Shown: piece after piece, positions 29,670-37,539 of the stretch
Layout: the number at the start of each line of letters is the position of its first letter
Position numbering within the stretch: position 1 is the first letter of the stretch
NCBI RefSeq assembly: GCF_030169785.1
Contig: NZ_CP125854.1
Span: 2,418,001-2,482,000, forward strand
Source of the DNA: Bdellovibrio sp. 22V
GTDB lineage: Bacteria; Bdellovibrionota; Bdellovibrionia; Bdellovibrionales; Bdellovibrionaceae
DNA: 64,000 bases
Direction of reading: 5' to 3'
The notes under the pieces: generated by a model
Databases searched by the model: none
What the model was told of the DNA's origin: nothing
The model's input: only the letters and a program-made list of their open reading frames with translations
Program-made: the position numbers and the translations under genes

Positions 29670-31610
29670 ATGCAGCCAGGAAAACCAGAAAATAAATTTG
29701 CACCCCCTTCTGACGTTAAATCTGTTTTGAGCAACCACAAAAAGCCCAAGAAGGTCACGGTCACAGCCGGCATGCCTTACGCCAACGGCCCTCTGCATTT
29801 AGGTCACTTGGCGGGAGCTCACGTTCCTGCTGACATTTACGCTCGCTGGATGCGCATGTTGATCGGAGCCGAGAATGTTCTTTTCGTTAACGGCAATGAC
29901 GATCATGGTTCCACGAGCGAAGTCGCCGCCGTTAAAGCGGGAAAAACAATTCGTGAGTTTATCGACACGATTCACGAACAACAAAAAGCGACTCTAAAAA
30001 AATACTCCATTCAAACGGATGTGTTCACGGGAACTTCCCGTCCAGAGACCTATCCTCTGCACGAAGCTTACTCACAGGATTTCTTGCGCCGATTGTATAA
30101 GAACGGTCTTTTAGAAAAACGCATCACAAAACAGTGGTTCGATCCGAAAATGAATCGCTTCCTGCAAGACCGCTTCGTGCGTGGGACATGCCCGAACTGC
30201 GGCAACAACGAAGCTTATTCTGACGAGTGCGATGCCTGCGGCACTCAGTTTGATCCAAGCACACTGAAAGATCCACGCAGCCAGTTGAGCGACGCCCAGC
30301 CGGAGCTTCGTGATACCGCTCACTGGTGGCTTGATATGTGGAAGGTCGCAGATCCTTTGAAAGCTTGGATCGAGACGAAACAAAAAGTATGGCGTTCTGC
30401 TGTCGTTCAAGAAGTGAGCAACACTGTTTTGATCGGCTGTCGTTTTGAAAACACGCACGAAGAAAAATACAAAGAGATCAAAGAGACTTTGCCAAAACAT
30501 AAATCCCGTTACGTTCCCGGCAAAAAAGTCGAGTGCTTGTTTGATACGAAAGCGGATCTTGCAAAAGCGCAACAGGTTCTTGAAGCCAACGGTATTCCTT
30601 CTGTCGTCACAGACAAATGGGGCTATCGCCCAATCACGCGCGACGTTTCTTGGGGTATTCCTGTTCCGGCAGAGCTGGATCCGGAAATGAAAGGCAAAAC
30701 TCTTTACGTGTGGCCGGACTCATTGATCGCGCCGATTATTTTCACGCAAGTGGCACTGACGCAAGCAGGCCGCAAAGCGGATGAGTACAAAGATTTCTGG
30801 TGTGATCCTGACGCAACCGTCGTTCAGTTCTTGGGACAAGACAACGTGTTCTTCTATACGATCATGCAGGGTTCGATGTGGCTTGGTCACAAGGAAGATC
30901 CGCAGCATCTTCCGCAAAAAGGTGATTTGCAAATGACGGAAATTTTGAGCTGTTACCACTTGATGGTGAACGGCGAAAAAATGAGCAAATCCAAAGGCAA
31001 CTTCTATACCGGAGATCAACTGCTTGAGATGGGCTATGCGCCGGATCAAGTCCGTTATTTCCTGGCGATGTTAAGTCTTGCGGTGAAAGCTTCGAACTTT
31101 GATTTCGAACACTTCAAAGAAAGAAACAAATTCCTTGCCGGCCCGATGAATGCCGCTTTCGAAAAACCGATTTCGGCGTGTCACTCGAAGTATGGCGGAA
31201 AAGTTCCTGAAGGAAAGTTGATCGGCAAAGCGGAAGCTGAAACCGTAAAACTTGTGCAAATGTATTTGCGCTCAATGCAAAAAGGCGATTATGCCATTTT
31301 GTTGGGCCAAGTTGAAAACTATGCAAGACAGATCAACTCGCTCTTTTCGCAATACAAACCGCACGATGACCGTGCCCCCGAAGCGGAAAGAAAAGATGCC
31401 TTGTTCACGTGCTTCTATGTGCTGAAGAATTTGATGATTATGTTGGCACCGTTCGTTCCAGAAACAATGAACGAGCTTCGCAAATCTTTAAATTTGCCTG
31501 AAACTGTATTCAGAGCCGAAGAGCTTGGAACAGGCATTCCTGCAGGTCACGTCATTAACGCCAAAGGGGTTTACTTCCCGGCTGTGGCAGACGAAGCTTC
31601 GAACTCTTAG
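29670..31610 (+). CDS. metG: Methionyl-tRNA synthetase
   Basis: 646 residues. Charges tRNA-Met, including the initiator tRNA encoded 1.1 kb upstream. The catalytic Rossmann fold has MPYANGPLHLGHLAGAHVP (HIGH-type, residues 43-46) and VNGEKMSKSKGN (KMSKS at 437-441). A zinc knuckle is formed by CPNCGNNEAYSDECDACG. An extra segment of roughly 65 residues (about residues 252-317, with KHKSRYVPGKKVECLFDTKA) interrupts the catalytic domain before TRDVSWGIPVP. The C-terminal EMAP-type tRNA-binding domain of some MetG proteins is absent. The ATG follows GAGGA. Confidence 0.95.
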   Translation: MQPGKPENKFAPPSDVKSVLSNHKKPKKVTVTAGMPYANGPLHLGHLAGAHVPADIYARWMRMLIGAENVLFVNGNDDHGSTSEVAAVKAGKTIREFIDTIHEQQKATLKKYSIQTDVFTGTSRPETYPLHEAYSQDFLRRLYKNGLLEKRITKQWFDPKMNRFLQDRFVRGTCPNCGNNEAYSDECDACGTQFDPSTLKDPRSQLSDAQPELRDTAHWWLDMWKVADPLKAWIETKQKVWRSAVVQEVSNTVLIGCRFENTHEEKYKEIKETLPKHKSRYVPGKKVECLFDTKADLAKAQQVLEANGIPSVVTDKWGYRPITRDVSWGIPVPAELDPEMKGKTLYVWPDSLIAPIIFTQVALTQAGRKADEYKDFWCDPDATVVQFLGQDNVFFYTIMQGSMWLGHKEDPQHLPQKGDLQMTEILSCYHLMVNGEKMSKSKGNFYTGDQLLEMGYAPDQVRYFLAMLSLAVKASNFDFEHFKERNKFLAGPMNAAFEKPISACHSKYGGKVPEGKLIGKAEAETVKLVQMYLRSMQKGDYAILLGQVENYARQINSLFSQYKPHDDRAPEAERKDALFTCFYVLKNLMIMLAPFVPETMNELRKSLNLPETVFRAEELGTGIPAGHVINAKGVYFPAVADEASNS

Positions 31611-32629
31611 TGCGAAGCTTGCACGCGTTTTTGCAACGTCCCCTGTGATTCTTTTTGCAGATTTAAAATCTCTGCGTAAGCATCCCCTTGGATACCCAGA
31701 GCCTGTGCGAAAGCCGGCTCTGTTTTTATCTTCTGCGCACGCAGCAACTGAATTTTCCTTTTCAAAGGCCATCCACCGCACTTTAAAAGACGTTCTTCTG
31801 CTAAGAAGTGTCGATACGCTTTTTGTTGGACGGTCTCGCGATTCTGAACAAAAATCTCGAAAGGAATTTCGTCGAATCGGAAGTTCGCCATCAGCGTATC
31901 CAAACCGTCCACCACAAGCTTTTGAACTTTAAAATCCGGGATCTCAGAATAATGCTCGCGCAGTTCTTGCTCTATCTGACTCAGATCATCCGCGCGCAAA
32001 AGAATATCCAAGTCTGAGCCCGCTGTCGCGATATCCAGCGGAAAGGTTCCCGCGACAAGCGGATCGTATTTTTTGAAGTCCTTAAGGATGCGTGATTCTT
32101 TCAAGGCCTTGTACACACGCTGATTCTTTTCAAGGTTGATAACAGAGTTGAGCGAAAGTAGATGAAATTTTAGATTTCTTTCTCCCAAACAGATTTCAAG
32201 CTCTTGATTAAAATCTTTCGCCAGGCCTCCGTGATCCATTTTCAGAGCCTTGTATTTTTCCATGAGGTGCGCCAACGGCATATCACAAACGACTTCAATA
32301 TGCTCAAAGCCTTCGGGCGTGGGCTTTGTCGGTTTCGGCGCCGGAAGCTCGACAACTTCAATAGACCAATTCATAAACGGCACTGCGGAATGCAGTTTAT
32401 AAGTTGCAATAGGACGACCGTTCACGTCGCTTTCAATCAGAAGATCTGCAAAGCTCGCGAAGCTTTTCTTCATTTCAACGTAGCGCTCGATACTGCTCAC
32501 ACGATAACAAAGATGATCGATATCCCAGTGTTCTTCAATCTGCACTTGATGCTCTTGAAGTTCGGAAAAAAGTTTTTGCAGGAATTCTTGAGCTAAAGAA
32601 TGAAAATGGGCGGCTGTCATGAGCCGCAT
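31607..32629 (-). CDS. YecM-like / DUF4269 fusion protein
   Basis: 340 residues with two joined domains. Residues about 5-170 match YecM (VOC-like fold): WDIDHLCYRVSSIERYVEMK, MNWSIEVVELPAPKPTKPTP, GFEHIEVVCDMPLAHL and LKFHLLSLNSVINLE. Residues 172-335 match DUF4269, a nucleotidyltransferase-like fold: LVAGTFPLDIATAGSDLDIL, FEIFVQNRETVQQKAYRHFL and KTEPAFAQALGIQGDAYAEI. In the VOC part, His and Glu residues (DHLCYR, EHIEV) could bind a metal. The stop overlaps the metG end by 4 bases (convergent). It starts 1 base after the protease gene's stop, so it may be the last gene of that operon. Function unknown. Confidence 0.88.
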   Translation of the reverse strand: MRLMTAAHFHSLAQEFLQKLFSELQEHQVQIEEHWDIDHLCYRVSSIERYVEMKKSFASFADLLIESDVNGRPIATYKLHSAVPFMNWSIEVVELPAPKPTKPTPEGFEHIEVVCDMPLAHLMEKYKALKMDHGGLAKDFNQELEICLGERNLKFHLLSLNSVINLEKNQRVYKALKESRILKDFKKYDPLVAGTFPLDIATAGSDLDILLRADDLSQIEQELREHYSEIPDFKVQKLVVDGLDTLMANFRFDEIPFEIFVQNRETVQQKAYRHFLAEERLLKCGGWPLKRKIQLLRAQKIKTEPAFAQALGIQGDAYAEILNLQKESQGTLQKRVQASH

Positions 32630-32630
32630 A

Positions 32631-33464
32631 CTACAAGTTCTTGAAGACTTTTTGAATGGGAATGATCTTTTCGCCTAAACAATCGGCAGCGCCGCAGACT
32701 TTAAGTACAAGCTGATCCGGATTCTTTTCAGAAGACACAAAGTCTGACTCACCGCCCACTAAAATACCGAGGAGTTCGTGCGTTTCAGATGAAAAGACTG
32801 GAGACCCCGAGTTGCCCGCAAAAACGTCGAGATCAGAAAGTACAATATTGCGGTCTAGAGAAAGGATCTGACCCTCGGCCTTTTTCTTAAATGCTCCGAG
32901 CGGATAACCAAGAGTATAGATTTTGCCTTTGAGCTTCGGCGAAGAATTAGAGATGCGCACCGAGGTCCCTAAAATCGGGGCGCTCAGACGCAGAAGTGCA
33001 TAGTCCAAATCTTCAGCATTTTCCTGTGCAATAACTTCCGCACAAGTACGAGAGATCACGTCCTCTGTTTTGCTGCTCTGAAAGTTAAAAAGAAAAACCG
33101 TTTCTTTGCAGGGAGCAAACCTTAGACAGTGCGCGGCCGTGAGAACAACATCGTCTTTGATTAAAACACCCGAGCAGTGAGCCACGGCGGGCTGATCTGT
33201 CCACGAAAGAGGATGACGTCCGTACAATTCTGACACGGTCGCCACCGAATTCCCCACGAGATACTCTGTTGCCACGCTTTGGCTGGTGAGCGCCACACTC
33301 ACACTGGCATTCGGGGTTTCGAGATCCACTTCGACTAGGGAATCAGTCCCATAAATCACGGCACTTTGAGACGGCGTTTTCTCAATAATGCCTGTTGCGG
33401 GATCCAACCCGCAACCTAGCATCTGAAATAAGAGCAGTCCTAAAAGAGCGTGAAGCTTATGCAT
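32631..33464 (-). CDS. Secreted trypsin-like serine protease, lipoprotein
   Basis: 277 residues. A lipoprotein signal peptide ends in the lipobox QMLGC (C18). The chymotrypsin-like domain has an intact triad: His in VVLTAAHCLRF, Asp in LDYALLRLSAPI and Ser in VFAGNSGSPVFSS. The chain has further cysteines (VAHCSGVLI, CKETVFLF, RTCAEVIA, VCGAADCLGE) that may form disulfides. Its start codon overlaps the stop of the deacetylase-like gene (TAATG). The protease should sit in the envelope or be released; a predatory role is inferred. Confidence 0.93.
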   Translation of the reverse strand: MHKLHALLGLLLFQMLGCGLDPATGIIEKTPSQSAVIYGTDSLVEVDLETPNASVSVALTSQSVATEYLVGNSVATVSELYGRHPLSWTDQPAVAHCSGVLIKDDVVLTAAHCLRFAPCKETVFLFNFQSSKTEDVISRTCAEVIAQENAEDLDYALLRLSAPILGTSVRISNSSPKLKGKIYTLGYPLGAFKKKAEGQILSLDRNIVLSDLDVFAGNSGSPVFSSETHELLGILVGGESDFVSSEKNPDQLVLKVCGAADCLGEKIIPIQKVFKNL

Positions 33465-35113
33465 TAATGGCCTTTCGAGAAATCCATCTCGTCCGCATGG
33501 GCTTCAGGCAGGTGTCCTTGCACCCAACGCTCTTCGAGATTTTCTGCAAGCACGGCTTCATTCTCACTTCCAATAGCGAAGATCTTGTACGTCGCTGTCG
33601 CCACTTCTTTTCCATGGCGGTCCGAAATCGCCATTCTGACAAGAGCGTCTTTGTCCCCTTGAGCGGCTTTGCGAACGTCGTCAAGTTGCACAACAAGGCT
33701 TTCAGAAACGGACACGCCATTCACCGTCGCTTTTGGCTTAAGTCCCGTGCGCTCGGCATCAACACCCGTCAATACAAATTTCATAGCTTGGGCATCCGCA
33801 GTCATATCAATCTGCAGGTCCCAGTGATGCGCGATCGCTGCGGATTTAGGACGAGACATTTTAACAAAGGCGCCATTTTTATATGCTTCCAACTGCGCGG
33901 GCGATTTCGTCTCGACGAAATTCATGAGTTCGGCGTAAGTACCGCACTTCACTTCGGGCTTTGCGCAAACTTCTTTTGCAAACTCATAAAACACTTCGTA
34001 ATAAGCGCCGCTCATCCATTGTGAAAAGTGATGGCCAATGTGCACGGGTGCTCTGTTGCCGTAATAGTTTTTCTCGAAGTATGAGCGGTACAATGTCATC
34101 ATATTCTTTTTCACCTTCGCTTTTTGCGCAGGTGAAACCATATTCAAGCAGGCTCTGTTTTTATTTGCTTTCACTTCCTGGTTCTTCTTGGCATCAAATA
34201 CCGTCAGAGCCATGGTTTGCGGCTCTTCAGAAAGCACACGCGCGGAATCGCGCACACAAAAGTTATAATCCATTGAAATCCAGCGGCGAGCTCCGCCTGG
34301 TTCTTGAATTTCTGCCAATGGGAAATTCCAAGTGCCATACTCATTTCGCTGAGGCCAGTAAGTTTCACGATTTACTTTCGACGTATCATAGGAAATACCG
34401 AACTTGGGAAGATTTGACCAAAGCCCTTCACTCACACCCAATACAGGAGCGCGGAATCCTTTGATGTCCTCTTTGCCAAAGAGCCACTTTCGGGATTTCA
34501 TTTTTACGGAACGCAGATCATTGAGTCGGAAAACGTTTTCAACGATATTATAAAACTGTTCAAACTCGCTGCGCCAGTCAGCCTCACTCCAAGCCAGATT
34601 CCATTTCCAAAGAATACCGCCACTGCCGTCGCGCTGGCATTTTCTTGTCGCCGGATCGATATGACATTCTTTATAGCCGCCATCGAAGTGCCCCACGGCA
34701 TGGGAGCCGATCTCGTGCCCTTCACGGTAAGCATCGTTCATATGGTCGATGCGAATCCCGATATCTTGATTGTCATCACCCCACCCGATCGCAGAACCAC
34801 GATTGCGAACCGTAACGACCTCGCCTTTGCGGGTTTCTAAACGATATCCAGGAGGTTGATAATTGGAAGAAGTTTCCGGCGTTAAAAGATAGACGGGATT
34901 TATAAAGTAAGTAAAACGCGTGTCGACGCCTTTTTGCTTCAGCTGTTTTGTAAAATCACGGGAGTATTGCCAGACTTCATTGTTATAAGAACCGTCAAAC
35001 GCAAAAAGAACAAACTGAGGCGGTCTTTGCACGGTTTTATTTTGCGCCCAAGAAAACTCCTGCGCAAAAATCATCGAAGCGATAAAACCTTTCAGCAACC
35101 AGCCTTTTTTCAT
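33464..35113 (-). CDS. Exported polysaccharide deacetylase-like protein
   Basis: 549 residues with a signal peptide (MKKGWLLKGFIASMIFAQEFSWA). The NodB-type domain has the catalytic Asp in VLFAFDGSYNN and the metal site EGHEIGSHAVGHFDGG, where the His-x-x-x-His pair binds metal. The second half of the chain (from about residue 370) has no known motif but contains several cysteines. NodB enzymes remove acetyl groups from peptidoglycan, chitin or other polymers; Bdellovibrio is known to modify prey peptidoglycan this way, so the target may be prey wall. It is followed at once by the protease gene. Confidence 0.85.
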   Translation of the reverse strand: MKKGWLLKGFIASMIFAQEFSWAQNKTVQRPPQFVLFAFDGSYNNEVWQYSRDFTKQLKQKGVDTRFTYFINPVYLLTPETSSNYQPPGYRLETRKGEVVTVRNRGSAIGWGDDNQDIGIRIDHMNDAYREGHEIGSHAVGHFDGGYKECHIDPATRKCQRDGSGGILWKWNLAWSEADWRSEFEQFYNIVENVFRLNDLRSVKMKSRKWLFGKEDIKGFRAPVLGVSEGLWSNLPKFGISYDTSKVNRETYWPQRNEYGTWNFPLAEIQEPGGARRWISMDYNFCVRDSARVLSEEPQTMALTVFDAKKNQEVKANKNRACLNMVSPAQKAKVKKNMMTLYRSYFEKNYYGNRAPVHIGHHFSQWMSGAYYEVFYEFAKEVCAKPEVKCGTYAELMNFVETKSPAQLEAYKNGAFVKMSRPKSAAIAHHWDLQIDMTADAQAMKFVLTGVDAERTGLKPKATVNGVSVSESLVVQLDDVRKAAQGDKDALVRMAISDRHGKEVATATYKIFAIGSENEAVLAENLEERWVQGHLPEAHADEMDFSKGH

Positions 35114-35211
35114 GCGTCCTCCCTATCCGTTCTGTAATGGATAGCAAGGAGCATACCTCTATTACGCCTTCTTAATGAAAGCTTGCATGTCTATTTCTTA
35201 ATCAAGAGACG

Positions 35212-35250
35212 ATTAAAGGTGCTGTCTAAAAATGAGACAGCACCTTTAAT
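35212..35250. terminator. Perfect 16-base inverted repeat, probable terminator
   Basis: ATTAAAGGTGCTGTCT (35212-35227) and its complement (35235-35250) flank a seven-base A-rich loop. It lies 4 bases past the stop of the gene at 35255-35857 and before the deacetylase gene. The last arm ends in TTTAAT, so a poly-U-like tail is short. Confidence 0.65.
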
Positions 35251-35254
35251 CGGA

Positions 35255-35857
35255 CTACTTCTTGACCGACTCAATGGAAACGGCCATCGCTTCTGTATAG
35301 GTCGCTTCGATCTGATCACCGACTTTGATGTTCTTCATTACGTCAGGCTGGGGTATTTGCAGCACGACGATTTTTTGCGGGCCTTGCACAGTGACCTGCT
35401 GATTTTTCTGATCGACTTTGATGACATTGCCGCGGGCTTTGACCGTTTGTGAAGCTACGCCCGCAGGTTTTTCGCCTTTCTTAGCACGATCCATTTCCGA
35501 TTCTTCCGTGCGCATAAGAGGTTCGCCGCCGCCTTTTTTGAGTTCAAGCGCCAGAGACTCCATATAGCTCACGCGCAGAAGATCGCCTTTTTTGATTTTA
35601 TCAAAATTCTGAATTTCGTCCCCGGCGGTGACGGTCATCTCTTCGCCGCTTGCGGGTTTGAGTTTTAATTGTCGCTTCTTTTTATCGACAGACACGACTT
35701 TAGCTTCGACTTCCACCGCGTCGAAAGCCTCCATGGATTTTCCATCCGAGCTTGTTCCTACAACTCCGCTCGGAGGAGACACCACAGTGTCTTGCGCTTG
35801 AACTGCGGAAACGCCCAGCAAAGAAACGACCGAGGAAAACAACACGGCATATTTCAT
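35255..35857 (-). CDS. Exported protein with two OB-like repeats
   Basis: 200 residues with a signal peptide (MKYAVLFSSVVSLLGVSAVQA). Two similar units follow: EVEAKVVSVDKKKRQLKLKP with a GDEIQNFDKIKKGDLLRVSY part, and KARGNVIKVDQKNQQVTVQG with QPDVMKNIKVGDQIEATYTE. Both end in the Y-x-E-(S/A)-x-A pattern. The pattern suggests small beta-barrels of the OB type, as in some periplasmic metal- or stress-related proteins. No cysteines or histidine clusters are visible. Function unknown. Confidence 0.7.
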   Translation of the reverse strand: MKYAVLFSSVVSLLGVSAVQAQDTVVSPPSGVVGTSSDGKSMEAFDAVEVEAKVVSVDKKKRQLKLKPASGEEMTVTAGDEIQNFDKIKKGDLLRVSYMESLALELKKGGGEPLMRTEESEMDRAKKGEKPAGVASQTVKARGNVIKVDQKNQQVTVQGPQKIVVLQIPQPDVMKNIKVGDQIEATYTEAMAVSIESVKK

Positions 35858-36122
35858 ATCGAGTCCTTTTTAAGAGTAGTTGATAAAAATCTTCTCTTAC
35901 TGCAACAAACCTAGTTTAGGAGGTCAATGAGTCTGAGTTGAGATTGCGTCGCTACAAATTTCTTATACCAAAATGAGGACTTAGATAGAGCTACCTTCAA
36001 CAAATCCCTCTATTCCAACACGGAATCTCTCCCCCTTTTAGCAAAGAGTTCGTTTCGGCTTTTAGGTTTCGATCTCTTCCGTTACCGTGACTCCTCAACA
36101 ACCTACATCCAATGGAGGAAAA

Positions 36123-37076
36123 ATGCTTAAGTTCATTGCGCTCGCACTGACTGTATGGACTGTCGCCGGAGCAGCTACAAGCTGGGCCGAGACTGAAACG
36201 GAAAACACTCAGCCTTTCGTCGTCGCAGGTCCGCCGGCCACACTCACACCTCTGCATGACGATCCCACGACACCCGGATGGTCACCATGGCTCAACATTG
36301 GTGGCATCGGAACTTCCGATCCCGCGGCCTGCTCGCGCGACGGTTATAAAACCGATGTCTTCGTGAGAGGCACGGACAATGCTCTTTGGTATCGACACTG
36401 GAATGGTTTTTCGTGGTCTGCGTGGGTTTCATTGGGTGGCGTGCTGACGTCTTCTCCGGGAGTTGCGTGCTGGGGTCCGAACCGCATCGACGTCTTTGTG
36501 CGTGGAACTGACAATGCTCTCTGGCAAAGAACTTTCCGCCGTAGCTGGCAACCGTGGGTTTCTTTGGGCGGAACTCTTGCTTCCGGTCCCGGAGTTTCTT
36601 CATGGGCGCACGGACGCCTTGATGTGTTCGTCAGAGGCACCGACAATGCTCTATGGCACAAGTGGTTCACACGTGGCTCATGGTCCGGCTGGGAATCTTT
36701 GGGAGGCACTTTCAAGGATGATCCTGCGGCTGTGTCTTGGGGTAACAATCGCATCGACGTTTTTGTTCGAGGCGGTGACAATGCTCTTTGGCACAAATGG
36801 TGGAATGGCTCGTGGTCAGGATGGGAGTCTTTGGGTGGTATTCTGACTTCATCTCCTGACGCCGCTTCGTGGTCTAATGGCCGACTGGATGTTTTCGGTC
36901 GCGGCACTGACAATGCTCTTTGGCATAAATGGTTCCAGGGCTCATGGTCCGCTTGGGAATCTTTAGGCGGCACCTTGACGTCGGGACCTGGCGCGACTTC
37001 TTCGGCTCCAGGTCGATTGATGGTCTTTGTTCTTGGAACAGACTTCCGCGTTTATTTCCGCGCGTATCGTAACTAA
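36123..37076 (+). CDS. Exported PLL-like (DUF346) lectin with six repeats
   Basis: 317 residues. A signal peptide (MLKFIALALTVWTVAGAATSWA) is followed from about residue 60 by six repeats of 45-49 residues, each with a W-x-x-W-x-S/N-L/I-G-G start and a core V-R-G-T-D-N-A-L-W. The first repeat has GWSPWLNIGG and the last WSAWESLGG. These are the marks of the Photorhabdus luminescens lectin (PLL)/DUF346 beta-propeller family, which binds fucose and related sugars. PLL has seven blades; only six units are seen here. The start is preceded by GGAGG. The sugar bound, and whether it is secreted, is unknown. Confidence 0.88.
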   Translation: MLKFIALALTVWTVAGAATSWAETETENTQPFVVAGPPATLTPLHDDPTTPGWSPWLNIGGIGTSDPAACSRDGYKTDVFVRGTDNALWYRHWNGFSWSAWVSLGGVLTSSPGVACWGPNRIDVFVRGTDNALWQRTFRRSWQPWVSLGGTLASGPGVSSWAHGRLDVFVRGTDNALWHKWFTRGSWSGWESLGGTFKDDPAAVSWGNNRIDVFVRGGDNALWHKWWNGSWSGWESLGGILTSSPDAASWSNGRLDVFGRGTDNALWHKWFQGSWSAWESLGGTLTSGPGATSSAPGRLMVFVLGTDFRVYFRAYRN

Positions 37077-37088
37077 CGCGAGTTCAAT

Positions 37089-37118
37089 AAAAAAGGCCGC
37101 CTTGCCGTGGCCTTTTTT
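37089..37118. terminator. Intrinsic terminator after the lectin gene
   Basis: AAAAAAGGCC (37089-37098) and GGCCTTTTTT (37109-37118) form a stem with a ten-base loop and a U-run on both strands. It lies 12 bases past the lectin gene and touches the end of the next gene on the other strand. Confidence 0.9.
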
Positions 37119-37539
37119 ATGCTGGTGCACTGAGGAGCTCTTTCACGCGAAGACGTAATTCTTGATAAATGGAAGAATCGCCGACCATTTCAATATTCAC
37201 TTCATAATCGACCGGAACACAGAGAAGTTCTTTGACGGGTTCACTCATTCCCACGATGTTTTTACGGCGCAGAGGCTCTTTAAAAACACTTTCAAGAGCT
37301 TTTGCCTGATCGCTGGTATAGAGAATCAAAGCGCGGAAGTCTTGAGCTGCTGGAGAAGGAGGATTCTGTAAAGCCTGAAGGATCGCCGTGAACTGCAGGG
37401 CCTCTAACGTTTGTTCCGCGACCGCAATTCCCGAGCGCAGAGCTAGAACATGATCGTCGGAAGTAATACAGTGAACCCAAGCACCCGCTTTGGATTCTGA
37501 ATCAAGCTCAGCATAGAAGTAGATCTTGAAAACCGTCAC
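37117..37539 (-). CDS. Unknown protein, possibly RNase H-like fold
   Basis: 140 residues. No signal peptide or membrane helix. The N-terminal 95 residues have the alternating pattern of an RNase H-like fold: KIYFYAELDSESKAGAWVHC, VAEQTLEALQFTAILQAL and RALILYTSDQAKALESVF. The catalytic carboxylate of RNase HI in the first strand is replaced, so activity is doubtful. The C-terminal part (DYEVNIEMVGDSSIYQELRL) is a helix-strand tail. Shares the lectin's terminator region. Fold call is tentative. Confidence 0.6.
   Translation of the reverse strand: MTVFKIYFYAELDSESKAGAWVHCITSDDHVLALRSGIAVAEQTLEALQFTAILQALQNPPSPAAQDFRALILYTSDQAKALESVFKEPLRRKNIVGMSEPVKELLCVPVDYEVNIEMVGDSSIYQELRLRVKELLSAPA

What the first reader, a model, noticed from the sequence alone, without database searches (positions are those of the whole stretch)
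36123..37076. Six-unit PLL-like lectin
A signal peptide followed by six nearly identical repeats of the PLL/DUF346 family suggests a secreted sugar-binding propeller. Known PLL lectins have seven blades, so six units may form an incomplete ring, or another unit comes from the N-terminus or a second chain.
Basis: partly seen in the sequence, partly recalled or inferred. Interest (0 to 1): 0.6.

Follow-up and report, generated by a model that had tools for sequence, protein, structure and literature searches.

The report
Six-bladed secreted PLL-type propeller lectin
A predatory Bdellovibrio encodes a secreted ring-shaped protein that is probably a sugar-binding lectin; its six repeats form a complete six-bladed ring built from blades known only in seven-bladed lectins, so nothing is missing, and similar six-blade rings occur in many bacteria.

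Summary
In detail: ORF 36123-37076(+) encodes a signal peptide, a short linker and six DUF346/PLL-type units of 43-45 aa. They are 40-68% identical, so "nearly identical" overstates it. The "incomplete ring" idea does not hold. AlphaFold2 gives a confident model (pLDDT 93, pTM 0.90) that superposes end to end on closed six-bladed fucose lectins (AFL/AAL, Z about 31, 2.2 Å, 257-262 residues). A seven-unit relative, modelled as a control, instead superposes on seven-bladed PLL (Z about 40). Six is the normal number: 90 of 98 intact arrays have six units, one has 12 (2×6) and seven have seven. The chain starts with an outer D strand and ends with strand C, so ring closure is inferred to be velcro-type, one strand out of register with PLL. 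The PHL hydrophobic (fucose/O-methyl sugar) pocket is conserved at most sites; the polar galactose pocket is not. Across 27 lineages only unit parity is conserved, which points to a triplicated two-blade module. Function: probable secreted multivalent lectin for deoxy- or O-methylated sugars; ligand and biological role are untested. Novelty: a six-bladed variant of a known lectin family.

The parts
36123..37076 (+). CDS of the six-bladed PLL-type lectin (317 aa, P0001)
   Evidence: open reading frame, RBS, DUF346 and PLL/PHL matches
36114..36118 (+). Shine-Dalgarno-like GGAGG before the ATG
   Evidence: Read directly from the sequence
36123..36188 (+). Signal peptide (residues 1-22, SWA|ET), no lipobox cysteine
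   Evidence: Sequence inspection; hydrophobic N-termini also in the Bdellovibrio orthologues
36189..36278 (+). Linker, residues 23-52; ends HDDPTTPG, a motif shared by many Bdellovibrio orthologues; mostly low pLDDT, so probably flexible
36279..36413 (+). Unit 1 (residues 53-97); its first strand WSPWLNIGG is inferred to be the D strand that closes blade 6
   Evidence: DSSP strands; strand register
36414..36545 (+). Unit 2 (residues 98-141)
36546..36680 (+). Unit 3 (residues 142-186)
36681..36812 (+). Unit 4 (residues 187-230); Thr of the sugar site replaced by Gly218
36813..36944 (+). Unit 5 (residues 231-274)
36945..37073 (+). Unit 6 (residues 275-317), diverged; sugar-site Trp replaced by Tyr311; chain ends after strand C
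37087..37120 (.). Terminator-like hairpin between convergent genes (AAAAAAGGCC...GGCCTTTTTT)
   Evidence: MFE -20.6 kcal/mol, z -3.67, 0 of 200 shuffles as stable

Best explanation
The gene encodes a secreted six-bladed beta-propeller lectin made of PLL/DUF346-type blades. Residues 53-317 form a complete ring. The chain starts with the outer D strand WSPWLNIGG, runs through five repeats of A-B-C-D and ends with A-B-C, so the N-terminal D strand zips into the last blade (velcro closure). Sugars are expected in up to six grooves between neighbouring blades, in the hydrophobic PHL/PLL-type pocket: the Trp of RGTDNALW from one blade faces the second Trp of WSxW from the next, with Thr and main-chain contacts. 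Four sites are fully equipped (units 1, 2, 3 and 5), one has lost the Thr (unit 4) and one has Tyr for Trp (unit 6). The second, polar galactose pocket of PHL is largely lost, because the blades lack four to five residues of the loop and the Gln. Likely ligands are therefore weakly bound monosaccharide termini with a methyl or methoxy group (L-fucose, L-rhamnose, O-methyl sugars), held on surfaces by avidity. In a predatory Bdellovibrio the likely target is a glycan of the prey or of its own envelope. Shown computationally: the unit count, relationship, fold model and site residues. Inferred: closure by the D strand, sugar binding, ligand class, location outside the cell, and role.
For: Closed six-bladed ring: AF2 pLDDT 93, pTM 0.90 from 60 sequences. 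VIA-align ranks AFL/AOL/AAL/SapL1 six-bladed lectins first (Z 30-31, rmsd 2.1-2.3, 254-262 residues, model range reaching residue 295). PLL/PHL superpose worse (Foldseek rmsd 4.1-4.7, TMq about 0.70) although they are closest in sequence (41-46% identity). Control: a seven-unit relative modelled the same way fits seven-bladed PLLs (Z 39-41, 300 residues, rmsd 1.7-1.9), so the method distinguishes six from seven. Unit counts: 90 six, 7 seven, 1 twelve, mostly at 44-46 aa spacing. Register: the seven-unit model aligns to PHL only from residue 25, just after its first D strand, and PHL ends with a D strand (SWSPWISLGGVLID). Sugar site: PHL 3F uses Thr194, Trp199, Trp214 and Val172 main chain (PMC5584973). 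The Trp199-equivalent is Trp in 53, 54, 55, 48, 32 and 47 of 60 sequences for units 1-6, and the Trp214-equivalent in 55-60 of 60. The six-unit arrangement is old in this group: 85 of 114 Bdellovibrio units match best at the same position.
Against: No binding has been measured here for any six-unit member. The coordinates could not be inspected, so D-strand closure comes from strand order and alignment ranges. Some relatives attach the propeller to kinases or phage-tail-like proteins, so binding to non-sugar ligands is possible. Units 4 and 6 lack key site residues. The gene is absent from a minority of Bdellovibrio genomes, so it is not essential for the lifestyle.
Confidence: 0.8

Rival explanations
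1. The six units form an incomplete seven-bladed ring that is completed by a second chain or by the N-terminal segment.
For: All solved close sequence relatives are seven-bladed, and fragments of seven-bladed WD40 propellers can assemble into oligomers with other blade numbers (PMC6805158).
Against: The model superposes on closed six-bladed rings along its length. Six-unit arrays dominate, and the 12-unit protein is 2x6. The N-terminal residues have low pLDDT and no unit-like sequence.
Confidence: 0.05
2. A six-bladed propeller that no longer acts as a lectin and serves as a protein-protein interaction or structural module in the envelope.
For: Propeller fused to a Ser/Thr kinase in Thermogemmatispora and to a Baseplate_J protein in Nitrotoga. 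Unit 6 has lost a site residue. The second copy in this genome is strongly diverged (44-45% identity).
Against: The two-Trp pocket is conserved in units 1-5 here and across the family, more than the fold alone would seem to need. Other fusions are to secreted proteases with peptidoglycan-binding domains, which fits a carbohydrate-targeting module.
Confidence: 0.2
3. An accessory lectin whose real target is a self glycan or matrix sugar of Bdellovibrio rather than prey (a version of the best explanation, so the confidences overlap).
For: The gene is patchy within the genus and stands at different chromosomal sites. No shared neighbour links it to known predation genes.
Against: No direct evidence either way.
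Confidence: 0.35

Closest known systems
PLL/PHL lectins of Photorhabdus (PLL, PLL2-PLL5, PHL; PF03984/DUF346; UniLectin PropLec7A)
   Same: Same blade sequence motif (WSxWxSLGG ... RLxVFxRGTDNALWH), 41-46% identity in the Foldseek alignments, same hydrophobic two-Trp inter-blade sugar pocket
   Different: Six blades not seven; blades 43-45 aa not about 49; signal peptide present (PLLs have no recognised one, PMC12203525); chain starts with strand D instead of A; polar galactose pocket (Gln and Ser/Gly loop) missing
AAL/AFL/AOL/SapL1 six-bladed fungal fucose lectins (PF07938) and the related RSL bacterial lectins
   Same: Six-bladed closed ring, best structural match (Z 30-31, rmsd 2.1-2.3)
   Different: Only 13-19% identical; the Pfam Fungal_lectin model does not match this protein; fucose is bound in a different, hydrogen-bond-rich way (PMC5584973)
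Seven-unit DUF346 proteins of Bacteroidota, Chloroflexota and Actinomycetota (L036, L043, L040, L034, L032, L070)
   Same: Same 45-aa blade and same starting strand
   Different: Seven blades, fitting PLL at Z about 40; in the tree they fall among the six-unit proteins (weak support 63)
BP39L and CV39L lectins (Burkholderia pseudomallei, Chromobacterium violaceum)
   Same: Bacterial propeller lectins found by Foldseek
   Different: 16-22% identity, about 360 aa; they superpose on the seven-unit control (Z 31-36)

Membership tests
DUF346 / PF03984 repeat family | Score over the curated cut-off of the Pfam model | tested here: met
   55.3 bits against 22; four stretches
PLL lectin family (PropLec7A) | Sequence homology to PLL/PHL | tested here: met
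   PHL E = 2e-112, PLL2 2.8e-94; no other solved family matched at E below 0.01
PLL lectin family (PropLec7A) | Seven-bladed propeller | tested here: not met
   Six units; model fits six-bladed lectins while a seven-unit control fits PLL
PLL lectin family (PropLec7A) | Hydrophobic fucose / O-methyl pocket (Thr194, Trp199, Trp214 of PHL) | tested here: met
   All residues in units 1, 2, 3 and 5; Gly for Thr in unit 4; Tyr for Trp in unit 6
PLL lectin family (PropLec7A) | Polar galactose pocket (Arg, Glu, Gln, Ser/Gly, two Trp of PHL) | tested here: not met
   Arg and Asp (for Glu) mostly kept, but the Gln position is not Gln and the following loop is 4-5 residues shorter. PLL3 itself has only some polar sites, so this is not strictly defining.
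PLL lectin family (PropLec7A) | Binds fucose or O-methylated sugars | not testable with these tools
   Needs purified protein
AAL/AFL fungal fucose lectin family (PF07938) | Six-bladed ring | tested here: met
   Z 30-31, rmsd 2.1-2.3
AAL/AFL fungal fucose lectin family (PF07938) | Match to the Fungal_lectin sequence family | tested here: not met
   No match for P0001 up to E = 1; relatives L017 and L055 show only sub-threshold matches

The most novel reading that the evidence does not exclude
A widespread, unrecognised class of six-bladed PLL-type lectins built as three copies of a two-blade module (A-B)3. In each lineage the blades were re-amplified or homogenised so that only parity, not position, is still shared between phyla, yet the count returns to six. 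In Bdellovibrio it is a secreted multivalent binder of prey-envelope deoxy- or methylated sugars.
Probability: 0.3. Interest if true: 0.55.

Novelty: new variant of a known kind. Interest (0 to 1): 0.36.

Why it matters
The characterised PLL-type lectins found here are all seven-bladed, and UniLectin files DUF346 under its seven-blade class (PropLec7A, PMC7778903). The same blade building complete six-blade rings in many phyla, and seven-blade rings in others, gives a natural pair for asking what sets propeller ring size. The parity signal suggests growth by blade pairs, which can be tested. For Bdellovibrio it adds a secreted candidate glycan binder to the surface-fibre (MAT) adhesins already shown to bind prey glycans.

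Tried and rejected
Phage or plasmid origin: no match in the phage records and no pattern hit in viral contigs; plasmid matches are all below 60% identity and mostly Streptomyces. Operon with the neighbours: the flanking genes on both sides run on the minus strand, and none of the 14 window genes tested except the lectin itself matches the DNA around the other Bdellovibrio copies, so genomic context says nothing about function. Empty-site test: inconclusive. The right neighbour (P0002) has no homologue in 23 other genomes of the genus; the left neighbour (P0003) is found in nine of them but without the window's own adjacent genes apart from one MetG. Promoter scan: no sigma-70-like site on the + strand, count as in shuffles. 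Published Bdellovibrio propeller lectin: none found in the open-access library. Z-score lists were not used to exclude any family.

Full report
WHAT IS THERE. The ORF at 36123-37076 (+) starts with ATG after GGAGG and encodes 317 aa. Residues 1-22 look like a signal peptide ending SWA|ET, with no lipoprotein cysteine. Residues 23-52 are a low-confidence linker ending HDDPTTPG, a motif also present in many Bdellovibrio orthologues. Six units of 45, 44, 45, 44, 44 and 43 aa follow, 40-68% identical to one another. A stable hairpin with T/A runs lies just after the stop codon, between convergent genes. DUF346 is over its cut-off, and the only sequence relatives of known structure are the Photorhabdus PLL/PHL lectins. 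The genome is a single 3.6-Mb contig; its closest named relatives in the searches are Bdellovibrio, with Bacteriovoracaceae joining the same branch.

SIX IS A COMPLETE NUMBER. A unit HMM run on all fetched loci finds 90 proteins with six units, seven with seven and one with twelve; successive units start mostly 44-46 aa apart. The 12-unit protein (L009, Azohydromonas) is two six-unit blocks. Two metagenome loci (L076, L081) show shorter arrays that could be real, truncated or mis-assembled. A few loci enter twice, because the same genome was reached by two searches (for example L004 and L086). The sample was drawn with the window protein as query, so it may favour six, but seven-unit proteins were also found, at 45-55% identity.

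STRUCTURE. AlphaFold2 on the mature protein with 59 relatives gave pLDDT 93 and pTM 0.90. Foldseek orders PLL/PHL first by E-value, which includes sequence similarity, but with rmsd 4.1-4.7 and TM about 0.70. VIA-align, by structure, puts the six-bladed AFL, AOL, AAL and SapL1 fucose lectins first (Z 30-31, rmsd 2.1-2.3 over 254-262 residues at 13-19% identity). As a control I modelled a seven-unit relative (L036, pLDDT 91.8): it matches PLL2/PLL4/PHL at Z 39-41 over 300 residues at 1.7-1.9 Å. So the same blade makes a six- or seven-membered ring according to the number of units.

HOW THE RING PROBABLY CLOSES. PHL begins with strand A and ends with strand D (its last aligned segment is SWSPWISLGGVLID). 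The window protein begins with the D-strand motif WSPWLNIGG and ends with strand C (VYFRAYRN). The seven-unit model has the same permuted start and aligns to PHL only from its residue 25 on. The simplest reading is that the N-terminal D strand completes the last blade, a velcro closure. I could not inspect coordinates, so this step is inferred.

SUGAR SITES. In PHL the fucose pocket between blades uses Thr194, Trp199 and Trp214 and main-chain atoms of Val172; a separate polar galactose pocket uses Arg, Glu, Gln, Ser/Gly and Trp residues (PMC5584973). The Thr/Trp/Trp set is complete for units 1, 2, 3 and 5 here, lacks Thr in unit 4 (Gly218) and has Tyr311 for Trp in unit 6. Across 60 relatives the second Trp is present in 55-60 sequences at every unit and the first in 32-55. 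The polar pocket has Arg (Lys in unit 1) and Asp (Met in unit 6), but Phe/Trp or another residue where Gln would be, and the loop is shortened by 4-5 residues, which is also why these units are 44 rather than 49 aa. The inferred ligand class is therefore fucose-like and O-methylated sugars, as reported for the PLL/PHL hydrophobic sites (PMC6943638; PMC5584973). Binding itself is untested.

EVOLUTION. Within Bdellovibrio each unit best matches the unit at the same position in orthologues (85 of 114; Bacteriovoracaceae 11 of 18; other phyla 84 of 390 where chance is 65). Between 27 lineages, units of the same parity are more alike than units of opposite parity (difference 0.043; 0 of 2000 random phase assignments reach it), while same position adds almost nothing beyond parity (0.635 against 0.632). 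The alternation is strongest in L009 (about 0.90 against 0.76) and clear in the window protein only for units 3 and 4. This suggests a two-blade module used three times, with later re-amplification or gene conversion in separate lineages; the two cannot be told apart here. Published work reports that propellers are continually re-amplified from single blades (PMC9218822); a two-blade period for this family was not mentioned in the passages I read.

DISTRIBUTION AND CONTEXT. 17 of 59 related genomes have a match, in only two genera. The Bdellovibrionota copies form one group in the tree (SH-aLRT 99). The copies stand next to different genes: an AbgT transporter and histidine kinase, an OPT transporter and AHSA1 protein, a flavodoxin, or a universal stress protein. 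The window copy shares flanking genes with none of them. The genome's second copy (L104) occupies the OPT-AHSA1 site, as does the G020 copy L088, but is strongly diverged (45-50% identity; branch 1.72). Relatives elsewhere carry the propeller behind matrixin with peptidoglycan-binding domains, subtilase, M23 peptidase or kinase domains, which fits a targeting module.

VERDICT. A real, complete six-bladed variant of the PLL/DUF346 lectin family, secreted, with most hydrophobic sugar sites intact. Membership of PropLec7A in the strict sense fails on blade number; it is better called a six-bladed PLL-type lectin. Which glycan it binds, and whether the target is prey or self, remains open. MAT fibre adhesins are the Bdellovibrio proteins already shown to bind prey glycans (PMC10769870); this protein is unrelated to them as far as I can tell.

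Noticed in passing
L009:3791-5647 (Azohydromonas caseinilytica): Twelve-unit protein: two tandem six-blade rings, with very strong alternation of two blade types (about 90% identity at even spacing, about 76% at odd).
   Followed up: partly
G000:C1:362234-363031 (L104): Second copy in the same genome, only 44-45% identical, on a very long branch, at the same chromosomal site (OPT transporter / AHSA1) as a normal-looking copy in genome G020; site residues look eroded.
   Followed up: partly
L011:2612-6190 (Candidatus Nitrotoga); similar large proteins L041, L081 (Nitrosomonadales, Gallionella): In L011 a six-blade propeller sits in the middle of a protein with a Baseplate_J domain (phage-tail or contractile-injection-like); L081 seems to have only about four blades, though it comes from a metagenome assembly.
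   Followed up: no
L075, L077, L079, L080, L082 (Thermogemmatispora): Six-unit propeller at the C-terminus of long proteins; L075 was scanned and has an N-terminal Ser/Thr protein kinase, perhaps a sugar-sensing receptor kinase.
   Followed up: no
L010, L013, L016 (a cyanobacterium, Mycobacterium, Ferruginibacter): Same three-part protein (PG_binding_1, matrixin protease, six-blade propeller) in three phyla, suggesting horizontal transfer of the whole gene.
   Followed up: no
window 37117-37539 (-): P0002, a 140-aa protein with no Pfam match and no homologue in 23 other genomes of the genus.
   Followed up: partly
window 31607-35857 (-): Run of four minus-strand genes, including a predicted secreted trypsin-like protease, a large secreted protein that looks like a polysaccharide deacetylase (both read by eye, not searched) and P0003 with a weak sub-threshold CusF match.
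   Followed up: no
window 36000-37000: GC content rises to about 55% over the lectin gene against about 46% around it; may reflect Trp/Gly-rich coding or foreign origin.
   Followed up: no
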